A DNA stretch of 64,000 nt from Desulfovibrio sp. ZJ209 (GTDB lineage Bacteria > Desulfobacterota > Desulfovibrionia > Desulfovibrionales > Desulfovibrionaceae), in assembly GCF_011039135.1 (NCBI RefSeq), contig NZ_JAAKEJ010000006.1, forward strand, positions 124,001 through 188,000. Direction: 5' to 3'. This document shows, piece after piece, positions 47,932 through 64,000 of this stretch (within the stretch, counting starts at the first letter, position 1; each line of letters opens with the position of its first letter). Made by a program: the position numbers and the translations under genes. The notes beneath the pieces are model-generated. The model ran no database searches, was not told the origin of the DNA, and worked only from the letters and a program-made list of their open reading frames with translations.

Positions 47932-50900
47932 CTAGACGCCCCAGACTTCAGCCTGGCGGGCTCCCTTCTCTCTTTGCTTGTCGTTCACTCTGTTCTGACG
48001 CCTGCGGGCCTTCACGCGCCGCATCACATCTTGCAAGGTGATGGTCATTTGCGGCTTGCCCTCCTCCCGCATCTTGGCGTTCCACGCCTCAATTTCCTTG
48101 ATTGCCTGCCTGCGCCCGGAGGGGTCGCCCGTGTCGTGGGTCTTGAGCGCCATGACGGTCAACTCGTCGAGCTTGGCGGAGCGCACCTCGTCCCGCCGCT
48201 TGCTGGCCGCATAGGCGTCATAGCTCTTTGTGCTGCTCACGGGCTGGAAACCGAGAGCCTTGCCGACTGCTTCCGCTCCCGACAGCTTGCGCGCGCCTTC
48301 CTTGCCGGGGCTGTTGATGGGCCTGCCGCGCATGGTCGTCTGGCCTTCGCTGTACAGGCGCCATGCCTGCATCCCGTTTCGGATGAACGTGGGCATGGCC
48401 TCCTCGATCATGCGCCAGTAGTTGCCCTGGGCCTGCGCGTCCATCATGTTTGAGACCTTCACGATGCCGAGGTCATAGGGAATACCGATAATGTCCCCTA
48501 TGCTGTCCGTGAGGACTTCCTTGGGGTTCTTCCCCTTGGAGAGCCCCTTGGTAAGCGGCGTCTCCATTTTGAGGGAGCCGCCAATGCTCACCCCGGCAAT
48601 GGCCGGGGCGCCGTAGCATACCGCGTCCCGCAGCAGATTGTTCTGGGGCAGGTAATTCCTGATGGTTTCCGTCCAGTCGTCATCGTCGCCGGTAACGGCC
48701 TGGAAGAGCGCCATGAGGGTCGCGTACAGGGGCAGCGCCGTCACGCCGCCAAGCGCCATGGTGGCGCCAATGCTCTTGGCGCAAAACGTCGCCCCTTCAC
48801 GGCCTTGGGTTCGCAGCGCCCATGCCCACATGGCGAGCATGTTGTGCGAGAACGTGCGGAACGTGTACATGGAGGCCATGGCGCGCCCGGCAGTGTTGCT
48901 CCGCATGAACTCGGGCATATTGCTCTTTCCATAGACAAAATGCGCGTCGCGCACCACTTCCGAGGCAAACTCCTTGGCCTGCTCGTAGGTCGCCTTCCCC
49001 TCGATGCCGTATTTCCCTTTCGCCTTCTCCTTCAGCTTGCCGCTGCGCGCCGCACGGTAGGCAGCGAGCGCGAGGGAGGCTCGGTTGAAGCGCTCGATTT
49101 CGCTCATGGGGAGGCCAAGAATCTTGGTAAACTTGTTCCAGAGGGACGCCCCGGTGACGCCGCGCAACTGCCCGCGAACCTCCTCCATGAAGGCGTCGGT
49201 AATCACGCTTTCGCCATACAACTCCTCGATAAGGCGGGCTTCGTCATCCGACAGGCCGCGCCCCTTGTTGCCCGTCACGCGATCCACGAGGGCATCCTGC
49301 GCCCCCTTGAGCCACATGAGCCCGCCCCCGGTGACATCCATCTGCAAGCGCGGAACGCCCACGACAAGGTTTTGCGTGGCGTTGACCACGGCGGTCTTTA
49401 TGCTGCCGCCAAGATACCACGCGAAGGCCACCGCCTTGATATTCCCGGTGATCCTGTCCACCCGGTCGCTGTTCCGCAGCATGTCCTTGGTGTACTGCGA
49501 GGCGTACTTCCAGAGGTTCGGCTTCTTGCGGGCGTCAATATTGGACAGCGCATCGCTGAAGTCCCAAGCCGCTTCCATTTTCGTCAGCCACCCGTTCAGG
49601 CCAGCCTTGTAGTCGTACAGGACACGCGCAATGTCCTCCGTCTCAAAGCCCGGCACACCCTTGCGACGGATGCCGTGCGAACCCCAACCCCGCGCCTTCA
49701 GCACATCGGAGACTCCCTCCGAGAGAATCTTGCTGATTTCCTGGGCACGCTCCTTGTCCCCGATTTTCGAGGTTGCCACACGAATGACCTGTTCCATGAC
49801 GGCATAATCAAATGGCGCCCCCAATACCTCGTCCGGCAGATTTTCGTTTTTGCCGTCCGTCCACTTCGCATCAGGATAGTTCGCCCGCTGCTCCATGACT
49901 ATCTGTTTCGCCTTGGCCATGGCAGCCTTCTCGCTTATGGCGTCGAAATGCTGCCGATAGACAACTTCATAGCCTACCTTTTTCTTGCCGTCTTCCCCGA
50001 CAGTGTTCACGGCCACCGTTGCCTGCACGAAATAGGCTCCGTACCGATGGTGCGGGAAGTAGTTGGGCACATGGCCGATACTCTGGCGGAATTTCCGAAT
50101 ATCCCCGTCACTCAATCCGGCCATATGGGCCATGCGATTATGGGCGCGGACAAGATCGTTATCGAGGCTTTTCCGAATTTCGAGCATGGCCTCCTTGGCC
50201 CGCGGCGTGGCATTCTCTGCGTCCAGGGCCTTCTTGAACACTTCGTAGAACTTCGGGTTTATCTCTATGAGTTCACGGCCATTGGGGAGCACCTCCTTGG
50301 TGACGACCTTGTCCACCTGACTCACATGCTCCTGCCACATTTCGCGGCCCTCAATTTTCCAAAGCAGCTTTTTGAGGCTTTCCAGATCAGGCCCAGCAAG
50401 GCGGGACTTGCCAAAGAGCGACGGCACCGTTTCAAGGCTCTTTTTCAGCGCCGCCGAGCGCTCGTCCATCCGCTGCAACTGGCGGTCATAGATCGCGGCA
50501 AATTCCTTGGCCTGCTTTGCAATCCAGTGGGGAAGCTGCACGATGGACTGCATGAAGGTGAGGTCGGACTTGCGGAACAGGTGTTGGATCTCCGGCACAT
50601 CGGATGCCTTGGCGGCATCCTTGACGCTCATGCCGAGGATGCGCTTCAGGCTCAGGGAAGCGAGAGGAGTATTGCCATTCTCGGGGCTGTGATTTATTTT
50701 TTCACCACTGCTTTGCCCCCGTAAGCTCTTCGGTGCATCTTCCGACTTTATGGATGCATGGCCAAGCCGGGCGTTAAATTCGGAGAGAAAGGGGTTCCGT
50801 TCGTCGGTTGCGGTAGAAGCGAGAGAGTGGCGCTTCCAAAGCAATTTTTTTGTCCCGCCTTCAGGATAGCCCGTATCAACGGGAAAGGCGGATTTTATTT

Positions 50901-53900
50901 CATAAAATTCGCCGTTTTTCTCCAGCTCAACAAACCCTGCCTGTTTCCCCTTGCTCCCATGACGCACCAGCGTCATGCTTTTGCCTGAGCCCTCCCATAT
51001 CTCGTCAAAGCCGTTGACCATATCCCACACAAAAGCCTGGACTCCCGGATAGCCAGCCTCCCGGATGTCATCGCCGTGGACATCTTCGATATGGGCAAGG
51101 CCAAAACCGGCGCCCATATAGCTGCGACCTCTCTTAAGGCGGAAAGGCGCGGCCTTGAGAGTGGTTCCATTGTTTAGCCTATGCGCATCCATCATGCCGA
51201 AATCTGGGCTCCCATCTGGTAGCAGCACAAGATCATGCGGGGATTCCCGCCTTCCTAGCTGCTGATAACTCACCTCTTCGGAGCCCTGCCTTACCGAGGC
51301 CATAGCTGTGGCCGCGTCCCTCATGCTGCCCGTGGCCGGTATGCCCTCCATGACATACCGACCGAGGGTCGTGAGCAGCCCGTCCACATCCGCCTTGTGG
51401 GCCACAGTGTAGTCACCCCCGGCCACGGCCCGGACCAGGCGCTCCCACGCCTGCGCCACGGCGCGAACGATACGCTTCCAGAAGGTCATCTCCTGGGGCG
51501 TGAGGCCGTCGAGCCGCTTCTTCTCGGCCAGAGAGGCGACAACCTCTTCCATGACGGTGAGCCGGTCGGCCACGTTGTTTCTCGGGTCGAGGCCATAAGT
51601 GCGCGCTATCTGCCGGATGCGGGCATTGCCCATCCCGCCCATGCTGAACCACAGCCGGTTGAGGATGCTCTTGCGCTCCGCCTCAGTGAGCATGCCCCGC
51701 AGGCCATGGTGGACGATCTGCTCATGTGCCCAGACTTCCGCCACCCGTTCCGCGTCACTGAGGTTGTCGGCCACAAACCACACCACGCCCGTGGCAGGGT
51801 CAAAAACGCCCTCAAGCGTGGTTTCCTCGTCCGCATAGCGCTGGCGGATATTCTCCGGCAATTCATCGAAAGTTTGCACCACGCGCGATTCTGCCGCGTT
51901 CTTGGCATTCTCTCCAAGTTTGGCTACCACGCGGCGCACGGTATCAGCCTGCATCCCATCCGAGGGGAGATGATGGCGGAGAAACTCGGCCGGGCTGATT
52001 GAGGCCAGCGGGCGCACGTCAACCTTCTTCTGGCCCGTGATTTCCCGCGCCACATCCTTGTTGTTGTCGGCCACGAGCCCGAAGCCCTGCGACGACATGA
52101 CCTCAAGGATAGCGCGGGCCTTCTGCTCCGGCAGGAACTTGAGGCACATGGAATTGCCGACCTTGGCAAAATCCTTCCCGGCCGCCTTGAGGATGCCGCC
52201 ATTCAGGTAGTACGCGGCGCCCTTGGCCTTGGATGCCGGCACGGCAATGGTGTAGCTGTCCCCTACGGTCCTCGTGAGAACGAAATTCTTGTCCTCTGTT
52301 TTGACGGCGCCAAACCTCTCCTCAACCCTTGAGAGAAAGTCCATCGCCTGCGCCGGCGTGAGCGGGACGTCGATGTTATTCAGCAGGTCATTGATGTTCG
52401 TGTCCTTGGGCAGCATGATGCCCGGGATGATATTCCCTTCATGATCCTCAAACTGGACGACCTTGCCCTTCCCGAGCCGCTCATAGGCCGCGATGATATT
52501 GCCTGTGGCGATATGCACTTTCTCCCGGCTGTCGCTTTGCCCGCTGTCGAGCGCCGCGTACACAGCATCGGCTTCGCTTTCATGCAAGACCCTGAAGATG
52601 AGCCCCGAAGCATCCTCATTTTCGATTTGCGAGAACGGGGCCATCAGTTTCTTGGAGGCGTCCGCCACAGCGAACTCCACTTTCCATGTGCTGAGGGCGA
52701 GAGGATTGTCCGGTGTGCCCTTCTGGTACACACTGGTCACAATGCCCAGCACCTTTGAGCCGTCCCGGCCATTGCTGATGGTTACGGGCGTGCCGGGGCG
52801 GAAGAAATTCGCCTCCCTCAGGAAAGCGTGCAGTGTCTCGCGGCTGCGCTCCTCAAATCCCTCGCGGCTCTCGGGACTGAGGCCTTTAAGCCGCTTGGCG
52901 AGCCACGTTTCAAAGCGCCTCTCCTGTTCCTCCACATCGACGCTCTTTCCGGCCGCCACCATTTCCCGAACCTTGGCCGCGGGGAAGGGGCGCCCCAGAC
53001 GCTTGACGCTGTATGTGCCCAGCTTTGCAGCCGCAGTGAACGGGGAATTGGCCGGGCCAACATCCTTCTTGGGGGCGATCTCCTCTTCCCGCTCAAGAAT
53101 GGCGTCCAGCGGCAGCGCCTTCGCCTCAAGATCGAGGGTGCCCAGCGCCTCCTCCTGAGCAATCAGCTCATTGTATTGAGTTTCCAAAAGCTCATAGAGG
53201 CGCGCCTGCTCCTTCACGGGGAGCAGGGGGATATACCCGGTGAGCTTCCGCATGGCGCTGTCCTCATCCTCCTTCAGCTTCTCCAGCGGTTTGCCCATCT
53301 TCTCGTGAAGTTCCTCGTTCTCCGCAATAACGGCCTTCGCAACCCTGTCCCCATACTCGTTCATGAAGTCCGGGATATTCTGGAAGGAGGCGTCGGAATC
53401 TTTCGCCGCGGTAGTGTTGGCGTTGAGGCTCGCCATTTTCTTGGCAAGGATGGCGGCCGGCCGCTTTTCGGCTGGGATGTCCGTAAACAGCAACTGGTAC
53501 TTCGGCGGCACGACCTGCCCGGTGCGGAAAATGCGCCCGAGCGTCTGCATGAACGTGTCGATGTTCAGGTCAGGCTGCGCGATGATCATCGTCCGGCGGC
53601 GCTGGTCCTTGAACCGCTCCGAAGCGTGGAGGCTGATGCCCGTGCTCCCCGAGGAATTGAGGATCAGGGCGTCCACGCCGCCGTTGTTGAACCCGTCAAT
53701 GACCTTGGCCCTGAGGCTGTTGCTGTCCTTCCGTGTGGCGAGGACAGGCGTTTCGCCGGAATAGTCGATACCCGCCGTCCGGCCCGTGATTTCCCCCACG
53801 GTGTAGCCCCGCTCCCGCAATCCCTGGGCAATGCTGTCAATGAACGACACGGGCAATTCTTCAAGGTTGGAGCGGTTGATAATTGCTTCAGCCTCCTTGA

Positions 53901-56900
53901 ACCGCCGGACGGCGCCCGGGCCGAGCTCTCCGTCAGTGAGCGGCCTGGTCTCAACCGTGTTCCCGTCGCTGTCCTTGATGGTCACCTGGCGCGCTTTCTG
54001 GAGATAGCGGAGAAAGAGGTCCTTGAACGACAGCCCTATGGCGTCACCCGTGCCAAGGCCATTCTCCTGCGCATACTCCTTGATAGCCGATTCCATGGTG
54101 TTGGAGAGCGTGATGACGGGCTTCTCGCCGCGCTTCAGCGCCTCGTCCGCCCCGTTGACGATGGCGTCCACCTTCTGCGCCAGCATGGCCTGCGCGATCA
54201 GGTTGTGCATGACCGTGGCGAAGCTCGTGGATTTCATGGCGTCTTCATTGGCGCCCTGGTTATCGAAGGCCAGACCGCCCGATGCCGCGGCGGCATCGTT
54301 GGCCTCCTCCACGGCCTTCTGCTTCGCGCGGTCAAAAAGCATGATGGCATGGAGAGCATCGGCGCAGTCATCGGCGCGCCTGGCATCGGTTTTTACCGAT
54401 TGCGTCTCAACATCCGCGCCCTCCCATGTGCGCTCGCGCCGGATGTACTGCCCGGCCTCGGCCAGCTGTGACGCCACCACCTGCTGCATGGGGATGCCGC
54501 CTCGGGAAATGGCTTCCGCGAGGGCGGAAATGTCATTCACCGCATGGCGCATGTCCGTCTTCATGTAGAGGTCCATGACCTTGGGGCTCTTGGCGTAGGT
54601 CGCGGACGAGTAGAACACGCCATTCGGGCTTTTCTGGAGCAGCTCACGGACGAACTTGGAAACAGGCGCTGCCTTGCCCTTGACCTCCCATGAATCGCCG
54701 GAAGCGCTCCCGCCTGCGCTATGGGATTCGTCGAGGATGAACAGCGCCCTCGGCGCCAGTTGGGAAAGAAAGTCGCGCCGTGGCGTCGGCTTGTTCCCGG
54801 TTCCCTTCATCTGGTCGTAGGTGGTGAACACGGCGTCATAGCCGTCAAGGCCATTTTCCAGGGCCTCGCGAAGGATCTTTTCGTGCTTGGCGGATGAGGC
54901 GGTTCTGAGGGTGCGGCCGTCCGGCAGCGGGATGGCGTCCTTGCCGGTAAGGCCGTTGTTCGTGGGCAGCGGCGTGAACCCCTCCATGCCAATATCGGAG
55001 AGGTCGCGCACCATGTCGCCGTAGAGCGTCGTTTGCCGCGTGACAAAGACAGGAATGAGTCCTTGTCTTTTGGCCCAGCGGATGATGGCCGCATTGACGC
55101 GGCCCTTGCCCACGCCCGTCTGGTCGCCGATGATGAAGCCGGCGCCCTGCGAAAGGTTGTGGATGGCAAGGCCGATGGCGTCTATTTGCTCGGCCGCGAA
55201 ATACTGGCCGAGTTCGGAGGCCGGATAGCCGAGCTCGCCCGCAACATAGTCGTCGATGTTGCCGTGGGCCTTTTCGAGCTCGGCCATGGACTTGCGGATG
55301 GACGTGGCCATGTTCTTGGGCACGAGCGTCCCAAGAGATTCATGCGCGCTGGTCTTCTGGTAAGGGGTCTGGAATTTGGTCGCCCGCTGCGGTCTTTTCT
55401 CCGGCTTTTTGCCGCTTAGGCGTTCCCCGTCACGCCCATTGCCCACCATTCCAGGCTTTCCGGGTACTCGCCCGGATCCTCCGTCGTTATCTTGAGGGGG
55501 GACTCGATGTCCCACAGGCTCAGCAGCCTGTCCATCAGCATAATGTCCATCAGCATGCTGTCGATCGCCCCCTCGCCCCCCTCGGCCAGGTAGCTTGCCG
55601 AGATTCCCGTCGCCAGATTGTAGCTGTGAAGCTCCCTGAGCGCCGCGCGCGCCATGTCGTACCGCGCCTCCCGGTTCTCCTCCGGCGTCGCCTCCTCGTC
55701 CTCCACGTCCTGAAGGAGCTTCTTGATGTTCCAGGCCAGAATCTGCTTCAGCTCGTTGAGGTTCTTGACCTCGTTCCCCTTCCAGTTCGGCGGCACTTCC
55801 AACGTCCCCGCGGGCCCGATGCCCGGCGTTATCCAGCGTTCTGCCATTGAAAAGCTCCTCCAGGGATTCAAAGCTCGTGAACATCCTCGGCGGCTGCGCG
55901 CCGGGGAAGATGCGCCCCTCGCTTGTGCCGTTGGTGTCCAGCACGATCACGTCAATGGGGAAACTGGCCCCCTGACGCGAATACAGTTTACCATCTATCG
56001 AGAAGTGTTCCAAGACGTGGTAGTTGTTGAACAGCCAGCCCCAAAACTTCGTCTGGGAGGCGGAACGGTAGCCTTTCTTCCGCGCCTCAGTTCCGCCCTG
56101 CTTGCCGCCGATGATCAGCACGGCGCGGCCCTTGCCGGAAAGCATTGCACCTCTTTGGCCTTTCAGGGCCTTCAATGCCCTCACAACGATTGCCTGGTCG
56201 AGCTCCTTGGTGGCAAAGCCGTCAACCACCATTTCCTGCGTGGCCGTGTGGTTCTCGTTCCAGACGCGCCCGAAGGGGGGATTGGCAATCACCACATCCA
56301 CGCCGTAAGGCGGCTTGAACTCTACGGCGTCCTGCTCGGTGACAGTGAAGCCCTGAGCCCGCAAACGCCGGGCGCGCTTGGGGTTCAGCTCATTGGCCGT
56401 CACATTGCCCGGCGTCGCCTCAATGAGAAGGGCACCGTTACCCGCCGTCGGCTCATAGACGGTCGTGTCCTTCCCGATGTGGGCCAGCCGCGATGCCAGA
56501 AACGCAATGGGCGTCGGGGTGCTGTATGCCTGCTGGGCAACGCTGGTGCTCGTCCTGGTGCCGAGAGTCGGCTGACGCTGGTAGAGGTCAACCAGCGCCC
56601 TGAAGATTTCCACATCGCTCGCGCCCCTGGCCCGCATGTCCTCAACTGTCTTGCGCGCGGCCTTGACAGCGCCAAGCTCGATAGCCTCGTCAATGGCCTT
56701 GGCGCCGATGGTGCCCGGCGCTATGTGACCGCCCATCAGCTCTCCGGCCTCTTTCCGTGCCTGCACAATGGAACTGTAGGCGGTTCCGGCACTGAGCTTG
56801 TCAGCGAAATATTCCGCAAGGGCCACCGTGTTCGGGTTGTCCGCAGTGCCGTAGTTGCGCTTTGCGGGGCGCGGACTTTCTGCCGTGCTGGGATTGCTGT

Positions 56901-59900
56901 TGACAAACGCGGGTTGGGAGCCTATTGCATTCTCAGCTTGTGAATCTGACGGGGGAGTCTTCCCGTTAGCTAAAGTCTGGTCAAAGTCGACTTCCTGGCC
57001 GGAGTTCTCAAGCTGATTATGCAATGGATAGGCTGTTACAAGCCACGTCCTTTTTTTCTCCTGCCATTCTAGGCTTATTACCGCTTTATTCCTATCGCTA
57101 ATAATCAACTTGCGTGACGAATCTTCAGCATCGTTTTCCACGCGGCCATTATTTATTATTTCTGGCAGGCGCTTCGCAAAGGCTACCCCATCGAGACCGT
57201 CTTTGTTTCGCCTTTCAATAATATGCTGCAAGCCGAATTTGCTGTTTCCCCACGGCAAGTCGATGTCCCCCAGCCCTTCCTTGTGGAACGCGGCGGGAAC
57301 GTACCCTTCTCGCACCTTCAGAAGATGCTCGATGGCCTCTTTGGGCCTGCCTGAGTATTCCGGGAAACTCGGCCCGAAGGGATCTTTTTCTACTTCCCCG
57401 TCCCCAGCCTTGTGCTCGATGGACCCGTCAACCAGCTCGGGAAGCGCGGCCGCGCTGCTTTCCTTCTGGCTGCCTTCCCTGTCGCTTGTTTCCTCCTCCT
57501 TCTTCTTGTCGAACATGGCATTGATCATCTCAACTTCGCTGTCCGTCAGCGACTTGACCCGATCCGTATTCACCACGTTCGCAAACAAATCCTTGGGATT
57601 GCTGTCCCGTTTTTCGCTCTCCTCAATAGCCTGTGCGGCCTTCTTGAGCGGTTCAAACTGCCGGGCCACGTCCGGGCCATGCTTTTCCAGGGCGCTCTGC
57701 ACAATTCCCTTGGCCTCGGCAGGGGTCATGCGGCTGTCGCCAACGACAACATGACCGTTTTCCGCATAGACGTGTGCCTGCCCGGTCTCGGTCGGGATGG
57801 TTCCGTAAGACGTGCGCTCTGTACTTTGCGGCTCGCGGTTTCTGCCTTCTTCTTCATGCTTGAGGAAGTTTATGGCATCCTCTATAGCTTTAAATCTACG
57901 CGTAGCGCCATCCTGGCCATATCTGTCTATGGCTTTCTGCATATCATCAATGGCCTCGGCAAGGGATATGCGGCGTTTCCCAATTACAACATGGCCATTT
58001 TCCGTATGAACTTTATACTCTCCAAACTTGTTCTGGATTGTCCCCCAATACTTGCGCTCCGCGTTTTCCTGCTCGGAGTTCTGGGTTTCACTCGCGGCCT
58101 GCTCCGGCTGCATCTGCCCAGCGTTCCCCTCGCTCTCATTAATCTTCGCGCCCTGTGCCACGACATTATTGAAGGCCCATTGCTCCACCCTCTTCTTGCT
58201 GGCACTGGCTTTCTCCGGCGTGGAGAAATCCGTCTTCGGGAAGGGCTTTGTCTTTTTGCCGTCGGGCAGCGCAAAGACCGTCCCGGCCGGCGCGGTTGGC
58301 AGGTTGTAGGCCGGGTCGCGGCTGAGGTTCTCTTCCGTGAGCGGTACCGGGTTTTGCTCGGTCTCAACGTACCGCTCAAGCTCCGCGTTGGTCATGCGCC
58401 GCGCGCCGCGCCTTTTCTCTTCCGACAGGCTGTTGAGAAGTTCAGTGCGCCGAGACGTGCGCGGGCTTGCCCCGCCCTTGGCATAGGGCGCGGTGACGAA
58501 AGAAGGCAGCGCATAGCCCCATGATGGCTCCACCTGCGGTGTTCTTGGCGCGCCCGTAATGGCCGGGGCGGCTTCTGGCGCCTTCGCTTCCTGCGGCATG
58601 GCCTCGGGCGCTGGCATCCCAAGGCCTTCGGCCATGGCCGTTGTGTCCGCACGGGGCGCAACCTGGGTATTGGTAATCTGGCTTTGCGTGGGCATGGCCG
58701 GGGGCGGCGTGACCTGCTCCGGCTGCTGCACACCCATCAGCCCGCCGATGCCCTGGGCCATACCGGGCCATGGATAACTCAACTGGCTGCGGCCACCCGC
58801 CCACCGCCCGGGCCCGGACGACGCGCCCGGCTCCTGCGGGAGCGCCTGCTTTGGCTGGTAGGGGGTGGTAATCGGCCGGGGCTCGTAAAAATCGGTAGGC
58901 GGCGCAATAGTGCCAAGGCCCGTGTCATTGGTGCCCATAGCCTGAGCGCCCGTGCCTTCTGGAAGCCCGAACACGCTGATGCCCTGGGCCATGCCGGTAG
59001 CATCTTGAGGGAGTTGCAGCAGGTCGATGGTCTCGCCTGCTTCCAGAGCCTGCTGGTGGGGCGTGTAGCGCACGGAAGGCGCGCGCCCTTGCTCAATGAG
59101 GAAATCCGCGTCGGCTTGGGCCTGCTCTCTTTCCTCCTGCTCCCTGATAAAATTGTCCGTCTCCGCGTAGCTCATTTCGTCCTGGTAATCGCGGACGAAA
59201 TCTCGCGGCGCCGCGCTCCGGGGAACTGGCATATTCCCCGGCTGCTGCTCAAAGACATACGGTGCCGCAGGCTGGACGCTGCCTGCATCCATGAAGGCGC
59301 TCCCCTTCTGTGGGTTTTCGCCTTCGGCATCCGGGGCCTGCTCGTCTTCGTTGATTGTGTTGTTCGCGGCGTCATCCGAGCGGCGGCGCATCCTGTTGGA
59401 AACAAGGTCAGCCGCTTTCTTGCCCCCGGCCATGAGTGTTGTCTGCCAGAAAGTTGCGGGGGCTACCTCCTTGAACGCTTCCCACGCGCCGGGAGCCTTG
59501 TCGCGCTGCCCAATTCCGGCCTCAATGTCGCCCTGCCCCATTTGGGTCGCCGTTTCGGTAGCAAGCTCCTCTCCATACAGCCCCGCCACCCTTTTAGCAG
59601 CGTGGCCTATGCCGCCCTTGAAAATTTTGGATCCAAGAGGGCCAAGCAGCTTGGCCATGAACAGGTTGCTCAGGGCTTCCGGGCCAGCCTCCCAAAGCCC
59701 ATACTGTGTGGCTTCGGAGTCAAAGTCAGCGGCAATGCGATCCCATTCCTCCTGGGTCGGTGCCCTGCCAAGCGCTTTCTCAGTTTCGCCGAGCATCCGC
59801 CGCATGAAATCTTCTTTGGTCGCCCTGTACGCAAGGACACCCGATGCGGCCATACCCGCCGCCGCCCCGGCCACAGGCCCACCGACAACGCCCGCAGCAA

Positions 59901-60294
59901 GGCCCGCCCCCAGACTCGCGCCCATCGTCCCCATGCTGTACGGCAACGAGGTCATGGCATCGGGGATGCCCTCGAATGTCTTGCCTTGGTATTTGCGGAC
60001 GTATGCCTCCTTTTCCCGTTCCCGTTGTGCGCGGCGCTCAAGCTCCGCCTTGTCCGTCACATCAATGTCACCGCCACCCCAGGCGTCGCGCACCGTGTCA
60101 ACGATGCCGTCTGGGATCATGGTAATCCCCTCAAGGATCGCTTCACCGCTATTGGCGAGCTTGGAGAGGAAGCCGGGCTCCTCCTGCTGCGCTTCCTGCG
60201 GGGCGTTGCCCCCGGTGAAATCTACCCCCGTGAAATCAAGAAGTAGGGAGGAGTAGTCGGTATTCGTCGGGCGGTTGGCGGTCTGCTTGGGCAT
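47932..60294 (-). CDS. Giant phage polyvalent protein: methylase, SBNO helicase, nuclease and peptidase-like domains
   Basis: 4,120 residues. Visible order: hydrophobic Gly/Ala segment ~116-155; Pro/Gln-rich region to ~640; two tandem ~75-residue repeats at ~743-895; barnase/EndoU-like (PBECR) domain ~980-1090 (GDIDLPWGNSKFGLQHIIERR); N6-adenine methylase ~1145-1460 (EPTAGNGALL, NPPF near 1335); Gly/Arg-rich stretch ~1483-1626; Strawberry-notch helicase ~1645-2400 (Walker A GDQTGVGKGR near 1722, LDESHSAGG near 1852, TLGRIFRTGQ near 2250); metallopeptidase-like AHEQIVHHGLRG near 2855; second PBECR-like domain ~3030-3170; C-terminal ~900 residues of the kind in large phage proteins, with a hydrophobic segment ~3835-3868. 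This matches the polyvalent proteins of phages and conjugative elements, thought to enter the cell with the DNA and blunt host defences. ATG 60294 follows GAAAGGACGCGACG. Confidence 0.85.
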   Translation of the reverse strand: MPKQTANRPTNTDYSSLLLDFTGVDFTGGNAPQEAQQEEPGFLSKLANSGEAILEGITMIPDGIVDTVRDAWGGGDIDVTDKAELERRAQREREKEAYVRKYQGKTFEGIPDAMTSLPYSMGTMGASLGAGLAAGVVGGPVAGAAAGMAASGVLAYRATKEDFMRRMLGETEKALGRAPTQEEWDRIAADFDSEATQYGLWEAGPEALSNLFMAKLLGPLGSKIFKGGIGHAAKRVAGLYGEELATETATQMGQGDIEAGIGQRDKAPGAWEAFKEVAPATFWQTTLMAGGKKAADLVSNRMRRRSDDAANNTINEDEQAPDAEGENPQKGSAFMDAGSVQPAAPYVFEQQPGNMPVPRSAAPRDFVRDYQDEMSYAETDNFIREQEEREQAQADADFLIEQGRAPSVRYTPHQQALEAGETIDLLQLPQDATGMAQGISVFGLPEGTGAQAMGTNDTGLGTIAPPTDFYEPRPITTPYQPKQALPQEPGASSGPGRWAGGRSQLSYPWPGMAQGIGGLMGVQQPEQVTPPPAMPTQSQITNTQVAPRADTTAMAEGLGMPAPEAMPQEAKAPEAAPAITGAPRTPQVEPSWGYALPSFVTAPYAKGGASPRTSRRTELLNSLSEEKRRGARRMTNAELERYVETEQNPVPLTEENLSRDPAYNLPTAPAGTVFALPDGKKTKPFPKTDFSTPEKASASKKRVEQWAFNNVVAQGAKINESEGNAGQMQPEQAASETQNSEQENAERKYWGTIQNKFGEYKVHTENGHVVIGKRRISLAEAIDDMQKAIDRYGQDGATRRFKAIEDAINFLKHEEEGRNREPQSTERTSYGTIPTETGQAHVYAENGHVVVGDSRMTPAEAKGIVQSALEKHGPDVARQFEPLKKAAQAIEESEKRDSNPKDLFANVVNTDRVKSLTDSEVEMINAMFDKKKEEETSDREGSQKESSAAALPELVDGSIEHKAGDGEVEKDPFGPSFPEYSGRPKEAIEHLLKVREGYVPAAFHKEGLGDIDLPWGNSKFGLQHIIERRNKDGLDGVAFAKRLPEIINNGRVENDAEDSSRKLIISDRNKAVISLEWQEKKRTWLVTAYPLHNQLENSGQEVDFDQTLANGKTPPSDSQAENAIGSQPAFVNSNPSTAESPRPAKRNYGTADNPNTVALAEYFADKLSAGTAYSSIVQARKEAGELMGGHIAPGTIGAKAIDEAIELGAVKAARKTVEDMRARGASDVEIFRALVDLYQRQPTLGTRTSTSVAQQAYSTPTPIAFLASRLAHIGKDTTVYEPTAGNGALLIEATPGNVTANELNPKRARRLRAQGFTVTEQDAVEFKPPYGVDVVIANPPFGRVWNENHTATQEMVVDGFATKELDQAIVVRALKALKGQRGAMLSGKGRAVLIIGGKQGGTEARKKGYRSASQTKFWGWLFNNYHVLEHFSIDGKLYSRQGASFPIDVIVLDTNGTSEGRIFPGAQPPRMFTSFESLEELFNGRTLDNAGHRARGDVGSAAELEGERGQEPQRAEADSGLEHQEAPSGRGGRGGDAGGEPGGAVRHGARGAQGASQLQSGDGNLGKLPGRGGRGGDRQHADGHYADGQAAEPVGHRVPPQDNDGGSGRVPGKPGMVGNGRDGERLSGKKPEKRPQRATKFQTPYQKTSAHESLGTLVPKNMATSIRKSMAELEKAHGNIDDYVAGELGYPASELGQYFAAEQIDAIGLAIHNLSQGAGFIIGDQTGVGKGRVNAAIIRWAKRQGLIPVFVTRQTTLYGDMVRDLSDIGMEGFTPLPTNNGLTGKDAIPLPDGRTLRTASSAKHEKILREALENGLDGYDAVFTTYDQMKGTGNKPTPRRDFLSQLAPRALFILDESHSAGGSASGDSWEVKGKAAPVSKFVRELLQKSPNGVFYSSATYAKSPKVMDLYMKTDMRHAVNDISALAEAISRGGIPMQQVVASQLAEAGQYIRRERTWEGADVETQSVKTDARRADDCADALHAIMLFDRAKQKAVEEANDAAAASGGLAFDNQGANEDAMKSTSFATVMHNLIAQAMLAQKVDAIVNGADEALKRGEKPVITLSNTMESAIKEYAQENGLGTGDAIGLSFKDLFLRYLQKARQVTIKDSDGNTVETRPLTDGELGPGAVRRFKEAEAIINRSNLEELPVSFIDSIAQGLRERGYTVGEITGRTAGIDYSGETPVLATRKDSNSLRAKVIDGFNNGGVDALILNSSGSTGISLHASERFKDQRRRTMIIAQPDLNIDTFMQTLGRIFRTGQVVPPKYQLLFTDIPAEKRPAAILAKKMASLNANTTAAKDSDASFQNIPDFMNEYGDRVAKAVIAENEELHEKMGKPLEKLKEDEDSAMRKLTGYIPLLPVKEQARLYELLETQYNELIAQEEALGTLDLEAKALPLDAILEREEEIAPKKDVGPANSPFTAAAKLGTYSVKRLGRPFPAAKVREMVAAGKSVDVEEQERRFETWLAKRLKGLSPESREGFEERSRETLHAFLREANFFRPGTPVTISNGRDGSKVLGIVTSVYQKGTPDNPLALSTWKVEFAVADASKKLMAPFSQIENEDASGLIFRVLHESEADAVYAALDSGQSDSREKVHIATGNIIAAYERLGKGKVVQFEDHEGNIIPGIMLPKDTNINDLLNNIDVPLTPAQAMDFLSRVEERFGAVKTEDKNFVLTRTVGDSYTIAVPASKAKGAAYYLNGGILKAAGKDFAKVGNSMCLKFLPEQKARAILEVMSSQGFGLVADNNKDVAREITGQKKVDVRPLASISPAEFLRHHLPSDGMQADTVRRVVAKLGENAKNAAESRVVQTFDELPENIRQRYADEETTLEGVFDPATGVVWFVADNLSDAERVAEVWAHEQIVHHGLRGMLTEAERKSILNRLWFSMGGMGNARIRQIARTYGLDPRNNVADRLTVMEEVVASLAEKKRLDGLTPQEMTFWKRIVRAVAQAWERLVRAVAGGDYTVAHKADVDGLLTTLGRYVMEGIPATGSMRDAATAMASVRQGSEEVSYQQLGRRESPHDLVLLPDGSPDFGMMDAHRLNNGTTLKAAPFRLKRGRSYMGAGFGLAHIEDVHGDDIREAGYPGVQAFVWDMVNGFDEIWEGSGKSMTLVRHGSKGKQAGFVELEKNGEFYEIKSAFPVDTGYPEGGTKKLLWKRHSLASTATDERNPFLSEFNARLGHASIKSEDAPKSLRGQSSGEKINHSPENGNTPLASLSLKRILGMSVKDAAKASDVPEIQHLFRKSDLTFMQSIVQLPHWIAKQAKEFAAIYDRQLQRMDERSAALKKSLETVPSLFGKSRLAGPDLESLKKLLWKIEGREMWQEHVSQVDKVVTKEVLPNGRELIEINPKFYEVFKKALDAENATPRAKEAMLEIRKSLDNDLVRAHNRMAHMAGLSDGDIRKFRQSIGHVPNYFPHHRYGAYFVQATVAVNTVGEDGKKKVGYEVVYRQHFDAISEKAAMAKAKQIVMEQRANYPDAKWTDGKNENLPDEVLGAPFDYAVMEQVIRVATSKIGDKERAQEISKILSEGVSDVLKARGWGSHGIRRKGVPGFETEDIARVLYDYKAGLNGWLTKMEAAWDFSDALSNIDARKKPNLWKYASQYTKDMLRNSDRVDRITGNIKAVAFAWYLGGSIKTAVVNATQNLVVGVPRLQMDVTGGGLMWLKGAQDALVDRVTGNKGRGLSDDEARLIEELYGESVITDAFMEEVRGQLRGVTGASLWNKFTKILGLPMSEIERFNRASLALAAYRAARSGKLKEKAKGKYGIEGKATYEQAKEFASEVVRDAHFVYGKSNMPEFMRSNTAGRAMASMYTFRTFSHNMLAMWAWALRTQGREGATFCAKSIGATMALGGVTALPLYATLMALFQAVTGDDDDWTETIRNYLPQNNLLRDAVCYGAPAIAGVSIGGSLKMETPLTKGLSKGKNPKEVLTDSIGDIIGIPYDLGIVKVSNMMDAQAQGNYWRMIEEAMPTFIRNGMQAWRLYSEGQTTMRGRPINSPGKEGARKLSGAEAVGKALGFQPVSSTKSYDAYAASKRRDEVRSAKLDELTVMALKTHDTGDPSGRRQAIKEIEAWNAKMREEGKPQMTITLQDVMRRVKARRRQNRVNDKQREKGARQAEVWGV
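55416..55847 (-). CDS. Nested gene in another frame inside the giant phage gene
   Basis: 143 codons on the same strand as the giant gene but in a different frame. GGAGGAG at 55855-55861, seven bases before ATG 55847, is among the best ribosome-binding sites in the window. The product is acidic and of natural composition (WITPGIGPAGTLEVPPNW, LKQILAWNIKKLLQDVED, ARAALRELHSYNLATG, IDSMLMDIMLMDRLLSLWD), with no family I recognise and no signal peptide. In the same stretch the giant frame encodes only Gly/Arg/Gln-rich text, as if it were the shadow. The giant frame must nevertheless be read through, so both are probably translated. Confidence 0.6.
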   Translation of the reverse strand: MAERWITPGIGPAGTLEVPPNWKGNEVKNLNELKQILAWNIKKLLQDVEDEEATPEENREARYDMARAALRELHSYNLATGISASYLAEGGEGAIDSMLMDIMLMDRLLSLWDIESPLKITTEDPGEYPESLEWWAMGVTGNA

Positions 60295-62963: not shown

Positions 62964-63635
62964 CTACCCCTTCGTGAAGCTGATGCCCTGCAAGATGCCA
63001 TTCTGGGCATTCAGAGTTGCGGCCTTCATCAAGCGATCAAAGTTCTCCTGTTCTGCACCCACGCGCGCCTGTGTCCGCGCCCCGGCAAGCTGTGCTGCCT
63101 TTTGCGTGTCGAGGGCGGCGGCAATCCCTTGGAATCGCCCGGAGTTCGGGTTGACCCCAAGCCGGGCATTCGCGCGCGCCGTCGTTGCCTGAACGTCCTT
63201 CCAGGCATTCGCCGTATCGGCGGTAGCCAAGGCCATGCGCTCGTTCACGTCCACGCCATCCAAGGCGGCGGTCATAATTTTTTTGGATGCCTCGGCCTGC
63301 TGCGGCAAGAGCTCCGTGGCCGCAGTCAACTGCTTCTTGTAGAGGTCGGTTTCAAGTGGCAACATTGCCAAATTGGCTTTTGCTTGCGCGATCTCGTAGG
63401 GCTTCTGGTAGTCCTGCCAGAGCTTGAAATACTCCCTCGCCCATGCCTGCTGCTCCTCGGAGAGTGTGGCCATGCGCGCGTTGTAGGCATAGTCCACCGT
63501 ATTTGTGGTGGAGCTCCCGCCACCGCTGCCACCGCCCATGCACTGAGCGACCGGGCCTTCGTAGTCGTAGCACTCGGCCTCCAGGGTTTCCCCCGTCTCA
63601 ATATCCATGACAAGGCGGGTGTAGATTTTCACCAT
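62964..63635 (-). CDS. Phage structural/internal protein, helical
   Basis: 223 residues starting MVKIYTRLVMDIETGETLEAECYDYEG, then a Gly/Ser loop (GGGSGGGSSTTNT) and a long helical body rich in Ala and Gln (YEIAQAKANLAMLPLETDLY, TDKQ-type heptads). The opening strand pair is common at the start of small podovirus structural proteins upstream of internal proteins. GGAGGTG eight bases before ATG 63635 decides the start; the frame extends to 63788 but overlaps the previous gene. It overlaps that gene by seven bases and ends nine bases before the next. Exact role unknown. Confidence 0.6.
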   Translation of the reverse strand: MVKIYTRLVMDIETGETLEAECYDYEGPVAQCMGGGSGGGSSTTNTVDYAYNARMATLSEEQQAWAREYFKLWQDYQKPYEIAQAKANLAMLPLETDLYKKQLTAATELLPQQAEASKKIMTAALDGVDVNERMALATADTANAWKDVQATTARANARLGVNPNSGRFQGIAAALDTQKAAQLAGARTQARVGAEQENFDRLMKAATLNAQNGILQGISFTKG

Positions 63636-64000
63636 CTCGCGGGCACCTCCTCCCCCTCGGCAATTCCGAGGATTTCTCGCGTGGCGCTCGTGACCACGCC
63701 TCCAACACTCTCTGCGCTTGCCGCAATGAAACACCGCGCCGGGATTGTCCCCGCGAGCTTCCACCCGCACTTTATGGCGGCGCGCCAAGCCAAGGGGTTT
63801 GTTTCAGGCGTTACCCCATAGAGGCAGTCGAAAAGGTATCCGGCCTCGTCCTTCCGGCTCAGGATGTACCTGTACAGGTGCCAGCCAATCCGCCGGTGGG
63901 TATTGCGCCCCCAGAATTTGCGGAAGATCACGAAATGGACACGCGCAGCCCGGCCCTCAATGCAGTTGAGCCATGTCAGGGCGGCTATTTGCTCCCCGCA
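63629..64000 (-). CDS. GNAT-like phage protein, 5' end outside window
   Basis: Open from the window edge to TGA 63629-63631, 123 codons visible. The text GEQIAALTWLNCIEG, then HRRIGWHLYRYILSR, and NPLAWRAAIKCGWKLAG has the pattern of an N-acetyltransferase C-terminal half, where the Asn-Ala-Gly/Gly-Trp segment ends the acetyl-CoA fold. Such proteins recur in the late regions of podoviruses; their target is unknown. A GTG at 63931 is possible but the frame is clearly coding upstream of it. Confidence 0.6.
   Translation of the reverse strand, partial: CGEQIAALTWLNCIEGRAARVHFVIFRKFWGRNTHRRIGWHLYRYILSRKDEAGYLFDCLYGVTPETNPLAWRAAIKCGWKLAGTIPARCFIAASAESVGGVVTSATREILGIAEGEEVPARW

What the first reader, a model, noticed from the sequence alone, without database searches (positions are those of the whole stretch)
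55416..55847. Overprinted gene: 143-codon ORF with a strong RBS nested out of frame in the giant phage gene
Both frames are open for 432 bases on the same strand. The nested frame has GGAGGAG seven bases from its ATG and encodes an ordinary-looking acidic protein. The giant frame in exactly this stretch (residues ~1483-1626) turns into Gly/Arg/Gln-rich text between the methylase and helicase domains, as if that linker were the derived frame. This suggests a small phage gene was swallowed when two proteins fused, and that it still works.
Basis: partly seen in the sequence, partly recalled or inferred. Interest (0 to 1): 0.82.

Follow-up and report, generated by a model that had tools for sequence, protein, structure and literature searches.

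The report
Hidden conserved gene inside phage gene
Inside one very large phage gene, in the stretch joining its DNA-methylating and helicase parts, a second small gene is written in another reading frame, and relatives of it sit in the same place in phages of bacteria from several phyla, so it almost certainly makes a working protein that genome annotation overlooks.

Summary
A 143-codon ORF (55416-55847, minus strand) with GGAGGAG 7 nt before its ATG lies +1 out of frame inside a 4120-codon giant gene, between its methylase and strawberry-notch-type helicase. Comparative evidence says it is a real gene. Of 139 distinct linkers from related methylase-helicase genes (Desulfovibrio, cyanobacteria, Bacteroidota, Pseudomonadota, viral contigs), 136 hold a +1 ORF over at least half the linker (51.4 expected from codon shuffles); the other three hold one over 37-44%. 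None has a +2 ORF over half, or a stop in the giant frame. In the overlap the fast-changing base moves to the nested wobble position, in 33 of 33 non-overlapping pairs. A relative is modelled at pLDDT 94; no fold match was found, and no Pfam, NCBIfam or PHROGs family fits. A 'swallowed gene' origin is not shown: no free-standing copy was found, and most distant fused methylase-helicases show no nested ORF. Most likely function (inferred): a small acidic partner of the DarB-like methylase-helicase, comparable in role to P1 Ulx but not related in sequence. No expression data were available.

The parts
55416..55847 (-). Nested gene, 143 aa, ATG at 55847, +1 relative to the giant frame
   Evidence: relatives at the same place
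55855..55861 (-). GGAGGAG ribosome-binding site of the nested gene, 7-nt spacer
   Evidence: sequence; SD of 6 nt or more at 32 of 90 nested first ATGs versus 1 of 971 giant internal Met codons
47932..60294 (-). Giant host gene, 4120 aa, polyvalent methylase-helicase type (DarB-like in broad architecture)
   Evidence: Pfam PBECR1, N6_Mtase, AAA_34, Helicase_C_4
56164..56307 (-). N-6 DNA methylase core match (Pfam N6_Mtase, residues 1330-1377); the aligned methylase region runs to about 55875
54382..55146 (-). Strawberry-notch-type helicase, AAA_34 (residues 1717-1971)
53131..53802 (-). Helicase_C_4 (residues 2165-2388)

Best explanation
A genuine overlapping gene. The mRNA of the giant polyvalent methylase-helicase has an internal ribosome-binding site just after the methylase domain, from which ribosomes make a separate, mostly acidic, folded protein (88-233 aa among representatives) in the +1 frame; it usually stops about 10 codons before the helicase region (in a few relatives, before a further domain). 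Ribosomes in the giant frame read the same bases as a hydrophilic, probably disordered linker. Shown by computation: conservation, fixed position and frame, start signals, selection on both frames, and a confident fold model for a relative. Inferred: the free protein acts with the methylase-helicase in whose gene it is encoded, as a dedicated partner in its folding, packaging into the phage head, or antirestriction activity after ejection, as Ulx is thought to do for DarB in phage P1.
For: Census of 153 distinct linkers: in the main clade (139) a +1 ORF over at least half the linker in 136, +2 in 0, best antisense frame in 28, giant stops in 0; codon-shuffle expectation 51.4 for +1 and 0.0 for +2. 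The three below the cut (L054, L060, L131) hold nested ORFs over 37-44% of longer linkers. Substitutions per site in 220 pairs at 70-80% identity: flanks 0.216/0.150/0.524 and 0.191/0.100/0.529 at giant positions 1/2/3; overlap 0.248/0.175/0.351 at nested positions 1/2/3, where nested 2 is giant 3. 33 of 33 non-overlapping pairs and 91 of 91 (not independent) Bacteroidota-type pairs have nested position 3 above nested position 2. Stops: giant frame 0 observed, 183 expected from shuffled nested codons, 90 representatives. Nested amino-acid identity 0.814 versus linker 0.708 at 0.848 nt identity, higher in 33 of 33 pairs. Strong SD at nested starts. pLDDT 94.2, pTM 0.88 for L124; 82.2, 0.75 for the window protein. 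On a 94-row methylase+helicase tree the 7 distant nested-free rows are split from the rest by one branch, SH-aLRT 88. Partner role: every nested-profile hit lies beside a methylase or helicase profile; methylase loci without a helicase profile (L050, L066, and L038, which is recombined) keep it. P1 precedent: Ulx is encoded next to darB and listed as aiding DarB localization (PMC9024508, a table passage).
Against: No transcript, ribosome-profiling or mass-spectrometry evidence. No fold or family match gives a biochemical function. The partner role rests on gene position and analogy. Sequence identity within the family is low (13-26% to the window protein in A2); 17 loci with both flanking profiles, outside the distant group L067-L078, gave no nested-profile hit at 1e-3, although they have a +1 ORF, so one common ancestry of all nested ORFs is not proved. 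33 of 90 nested first ATGs lack an SD match of 4 nt or more. L059, a methylase-only locus, has no nested ORF.
Confidence: 0.93

Rival explanations
1. Swallowed gene: a separate small gene lay between methylase and helicase genes, and the giant frame became open through it when they fused, making the linker the newer frame.
For: Nested frame has ordinary codon-position G+C, the linker does not; a nested relative folds confidently; a paper says methylase and SWI2/SNF2 ATPase occur in one polypeptide or as neighbouring genes (PMC5512222, section 14).
Against: No separate methylase - small gene - helicase arrangement and no relative outside such a gene or its remnant was seen (tblastn searches also found nothing but missed a known copy, so they weigh little). 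Distant relatives are fused without a nested-profile hit. Codon bias may reflect which frame is under stronger selection rather than which is older.
Confidence: 0.3
2. De novo overprinting: the nested frame arose inside an existing linker of an already fused methylase-helicase, once, before the spread into phages of many phyla.
For: Fused nested-free distant group, one change on the tree; no known family or fold found; a hydrophilic linker should tolerate composition change (inference).
Against: The root is not inferred, so gain and loss cannot be told apart; ordinary codon bias in the nested frame; the short nested forms may not be homologous.
Confidence: 0.5
3. The nested protein is itself an antirestriction DNA mimic, independent of the methylase-helicase.
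For: Acidic: median pI 4.43, net charge -5 or lower in 78 of 90 representatives; lies in an antirestriction-type gene.
Against: Median net charge only -10; no fold match (inconclusive); strict co-location with one gene.
Confidence: 0.12
4. Not a gene: a by-product of G+C-rich repetitive linker sequence.
For: The linker composition favours open +1 frames (51.4 of 139 expected under shuffles), and 28 of 139 linkers also hold an antisense ORF over half their length.
Against: 136 of 139 observed; rotated substitution pattern; SD signals; confident fold; open in low-G+C members (0.39-0.47 in L113, L024, L049, L149).
Confidence: 0.02
5. The nested frame is reached by frameshift from the methylase frame, making a methylase-nested fusion.
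For: Same strand, +1 frame, close behind the methylase.
Against: ATG with SD; a nested-frame stop lies within 10 codons upstream of the start in 70 of 90 representatives and directly before it in 30.
Confidence: 0.03

Closest known systems
Phage genes embedded out of frame in another gene (Rz1 inside Rz of lambda-type phages; phiX174 overlaps)
   Same: A complete gene nested in another frame of a phage gene, own start signal, both products selected (the named examples are recalled, no call).
   Different: Host frame is an interdomain linker of a giant polyvalent enzyme; the nested product matches no family searched; conserved in phages of several bacterial phyla.
DarB-like methylase-helicase polyvalent proteins (PMC5512222)
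   Same: The host gene: adenine methylase followed by an SF2 helicase, phage-borne, near a gene matching a virion structural protein.
   Different: Helicase is the strawberry-notch type (AAA_34/Helicase_C_4), not the SNF2 type of P1 DarB. P1 DarB is hit by none of my methylase, helicase or nested profiles even at E 10; between its methylase and helicase it has a 177-codon open +1 stretch, Arg/Ser-rich, which I did not test for selection. In the passages and section 14 seen there is nothing on a nested gene ('overlapping' 0 times, 'nested' twice, of a hairpin).
Phage P1 Ulx
   Same: Small protein (146 aa) encoded next to darB; listed as aiding DarB localization.
   Different: Separate gene downstream, not nested; no sequence relation (hhalign probability 0.1).

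Membership tests
Embedded overlapping gene (kind) | Complete ORF inside another ORF in another frame | tested here: met
Embedded overlapping gene (kind) | Both frames under selection | tested here: met
Embedded overlapping gene (kind) | Nested product made in cells | not testable with these tools
   needs ribosome profiling or mass spectrometry
DarB-like polyvalent methylase-helicase (host gene) | Adenine methylase with NPP(Y/F) motif fused to an SF2 helicase | tested here: met
DarB-like polyvalent methylase-helicase (host gene) | LPD36 domain before the methylase | not tested
   no search with an LPD36 model was made
DarB-like polyvalent methylase-helicase (host gene) | Packaged in the virion and ejected | not testable with these tools
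   a neighbour matches a PHROG virion structural protein, which is only context
P1 Ulx | Sequence homology to Ulx | tested here: not met
Any Pfam, PHROGs or NCBIfam family | Profile match for the nested protein | tested here: not met
   PHROGs: window protein best E 0.28, two families each match 1 of 56 members at about 0.003; Pfam 0; NCBIfam 1 of 61 members, far below cut-off
Known protein fold (PDB) | Significant structural match | tested here: inconclusive
   no Foldseek E at or below 0.001 (viral library 59); VIA-align no Z of 2 or more for L124, best Z 3.8 for the window model; a missing match does not prove a new fold
DNA-mimic antirestriction proteins (Ocr/ArdA-like) | DNA-like acidic surface and restriction inhibition | not testable with these tools
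   only bulk acidity was measured

The most novel reading that the evidence does not exclude
A previously unrecognised protein family with a possibly new fold is encoded almost obligatorily inside the linker of phage methylase-helicase genes across several bacterial phyla; it is the missing small subunit of DarB-like antirestriction machines, made from within its partner's own gene so that the two are always inherited and produced together.
Probability: 0.45. Interest if true: 0.88.

Novelty: new variant of a known kind. Interest (0 to 1): 0.82.

Why it matters
A gene in phages of several bacterial phyla appears to be missing from annotation because pipelines do not call a gene inside another: in Bacteroides phage BS-TP4, and in a Synechococcus plasmid as listed in the (incomplete) plasmid gene table, only the giant gene is annotated over it. 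It gives a clean, testable case of one DNA stretch coding a folded protein in one frame and a probably disordered linker in the other, kept over large divergence, and it may supply a missing part of DarB-like antirestriction systems.

Tried and rejected
Chance ORF: rejected. Frameshift product: disfavoured. Homology to Ulx: rejected. Weak hits judged chance: PADLOC CARF 8.5e-4 in 1 of 61 members, NCBIfam Rpb4 0.0039 in 1 of 61, PDB best E 0.56. Structure look-up: nothing with Foldseek E at or below 0.001; VIA-align no Z of 2 or more for the relative, Z 3.8 at best for the window model. Scans of viral contigs with two distant-type cores (L069, L253) found no relatives. L013 was fetched as a weak hit and is unrelated. 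The longest-ORF rule picked wrong nested ORFs in L054 and L060; corrected. Two hits were flagged with one inner stop (G330, G337); it is the gene's own stop, run past by the match. tblastn of two nested proteins against the phage records found nothing although one record, BS-TP4, holds a copy that the profile finds, so those two searches are insensitive.

Row handling: the 90 representatives come from 124 loci chosen for nested ORFs of 240 nt or more, leaving out same-contig duplicates and L054, L060, L073, so their zero nested-frame stops are partly by construction; one search has no such filter (251 loci, 98 identical linkers left out, none too short). Pairs and the 91 are not independent; the 33 share no sequence. 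The 214 loci hold duplicates (112 distinct nested hit sequences). On the tree I labelled L067-L078 'absent' and every other row 'nested', also rows without a profile hit. Of 181 viral relatives only the best 80 were kept.

Literature: seven searches (listings and abstract starts seen), passages of PMC5512222, PMC9024508 and PMC12810830 and one section of PMC5512222 showed no description of this nested gene; subscription papers and preprints were not searched.

Full report
What is there. On the minus strand at 55416-55847 an ATG-started 143-codon ORF lies +1 out of frame inside a 4120-codon gene (47932-60294), with GGAGGAG 7 nt upstream of the ATG. The giant protein has Pfam matches to PBECR1, N6_Mtase, AAA_34 and Helicase_C_4; the overlap falls between methylase and helicase, where the giant text is Gly/Arg/Gln-rich. 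The third ORF upstream (62964-63788; residues scanned 62967-63734) matches a PHROG virion structural protein at 8e-9, while the two ORFs between gave no PHROG match, so this looks like a phage structural neighbourhood in a bacterial genome.

First relatives. The nested protein itself found relatives in 3 of 100 other genomes, all of the same genus, at 28-32% identity, each nested +1 at the same place. With the methylase-helicase core as bait, 67 loci came from genome contigs and 80 (the best of 181) from viral contigs. In 149 of the 161 loci then held both flanking profiles fell in one frame, with no stop in the giant linker.

Census. After all fetching, 251 loci had both flanking profiles in one frame, giving 153 distinct linkers: 139 in the main clade (methylase profile E below 1e-35) and 14 outside it. 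In the main clade a +1 ORF covers at least half the linker in 136, a +2 ORF in 0, the best antisense frame in 28, and the giant frame has a stop in 0. Synonymous shuffles of the giant codons would give 51.4 (+1) and 0.0 (+2). The three below the cut (L054, L060, L131) have longer linkers with nested ORFs over 37-44% of them. Of the 14 outside, 1 passes for +1 (L254), 1 for +2 (L253), 4 for antisense, and none has a nested-profile hit. A profile of the nested family hit 214 loci (112 distinct hit sequences), always +1: 211 of 211 with a methylase hit on the same strand and 209 of 209 with a helicase hit. With later loci the number of hits is 225, none with a stop more than 12 residues inside the hit. 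35 loci with a methylase profile gave no nested-profile hit: 12 are the distant group L067-L078, 17 others have both flanks and mostly short or diverged +1 ORFs, 6 have the methylase flank only.

Selection. In the flanks the third giant codon position changes fastest. In the overlap the same column (nested second position) is the slowest and the nested third position the fastest: 0.248/0.175/0.351 against 0.216/0.150/0.524 and 0.191/0.100/0.529 (220 pairs at 70-80% identity). All 33 non-overlapping pairs agree, as do all 91 pairs of a Bacteroidota-type set of 19 loci, 12 of them fetched afterwards (all 19 with the +1 ORF, 17 with a profile hit). The nested wobble (0.351) is still slower than flank wobbles, so the giant frame also constrains it; and the giant frame shows 0 stops where shuffled nested codons predict 183 over 90 representatives. 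The linker is slightly less hydrophobic than that null (0.118 against 0.129; lower in 85 of 90). Thus both frames are kept: one as a protein sequence, the other as an open hydrophilic linker.

Start signals. Taking the first nested ATG by position alone, an SD match of 6 nt or more precedes 32 of 90, against 1 of 971 giant internal Met codons and 24 of 1222 other out-of-frame ATGs in the flanks; at 4 nt or more the figures are 57 of 90, 170 of 971 and 273 of 1222. A nested-frame stop lies within 10 codons upstream in 70 of 90, which argues against a frameshift fusion.

Protein. Median length 131 aa, range 88-233; median pI 4.43, range 4.05-9.10. AlphaFold2 gives pLDDT 94.2 and pTM 0.88 for L124, and 82.2 and 0.75 for the window protein. 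Foldseek found nothing at E 0.001 or below in PDB for both models, nor in viral predicted structures for the L124 model; VIA-align gave no Z of 2 or more for L124 and at best 3.8 for the window model. No sequence family fits. A new fold is possible but not shown.

Origin. On a 94-row tree of methylase+helicase columns the 7 rows labelled as without the gene are split from the other 87 by one branch (SH-aLRT 88; midpoint root, long branches flagged). Those 7 are already fused; they are Pseudomonadota of a type also common on plasmids (334 plasmid records match the core). No copy was found outside a methylase-helicase gene or its remnant in genomes (9 of 297, 21 of 28 and 1 of 297 with hits) or viral contigs (44 loci), all hits that were fetched lying +1 beside a flank profile. 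Overprinting in an existing linker is therefore slightly favoured over a swallowed gene, but codon bias points the other way and the root is unknown.

Function. Inferred only. The strict address, and methylase loci without a helicase profile that keep the nested ORF (L050, L066; L038 is recombined behind it), suggest a partner of the methylase part. In phage P1, DarB, also a methylase-helicase, has a 146-aa neighbour gene product, Ulx, listed as aiding DarB localization; Dar proteins are said to be ejected with the DNA. The nested protein could work like Ulx; it is not its homologue. P1 DarB itself is beyond the reach of all three profiles; a 177-codon +1 open stretch before its helicase looks unlike the family, but was not tested for selection.

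Noticed in passing
L173 3045-4091 (minus), genome G073: The nested-family sequence is here the in-frame C-terminal part of a 348-aa ORF whose front matches a DarB-like PHROG (1.6e-27); the helicase behind it is truncated. The only copy seen outside a host gene of the usual plan.
   Followed up: partly
L256 (Thioflavicoccus mobilis plasmid pTHIMO01), linker between methylase and helicase profiles: A distant methylase-helicase has a +1 ORF (48% of the linker) with acidic, gene-like text in a Gly/Pro/Arg-rich linker, without a nested-profile hit: a possible second or very diverged nested gene.
   Followed up: partly
L257 10469-17236 (P1 darB), codons about 646-823: A 177-codon open +1 stretch, Arg/Ser-rich, lies between methylase and helicase of P1 DarB; no profile hit; selection not tested.
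   Followed up: no
L050 (Acidobacteria 28-1): Methylase kept, no helicase profile; the nested ORF is intact and the methylase frame ends right after it.
   Followed up: partly
L033, L103, L113, L127, L160 and others: A short form of the nested ORF (about 90-100 aa) lacking the N-terminal W-x-P part, without a nested-profile hit, occurs in part of the tree; whether it is the same fold was not tested.
   Followed up: no
genome G328 (Nodosilinea sp. LEGE 07298, loci L036, L053, L240-L243): Five nested-family hits in one cyanobacterial genome, suggesting several related prophages or elements.
   Followed up: no
L045 and L162: The nested protein of a Phocaeicola massiliensis DSM 17679 locus is identical to that of cultured Bacteroides phage BS-TP4, giving an experimental handle.
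   Followed up: yes
window 57025-57291 (minus): PBECR1 nuclease-like domain in the same giant protein (Pfam 2.4e-15).
   Followed up: no
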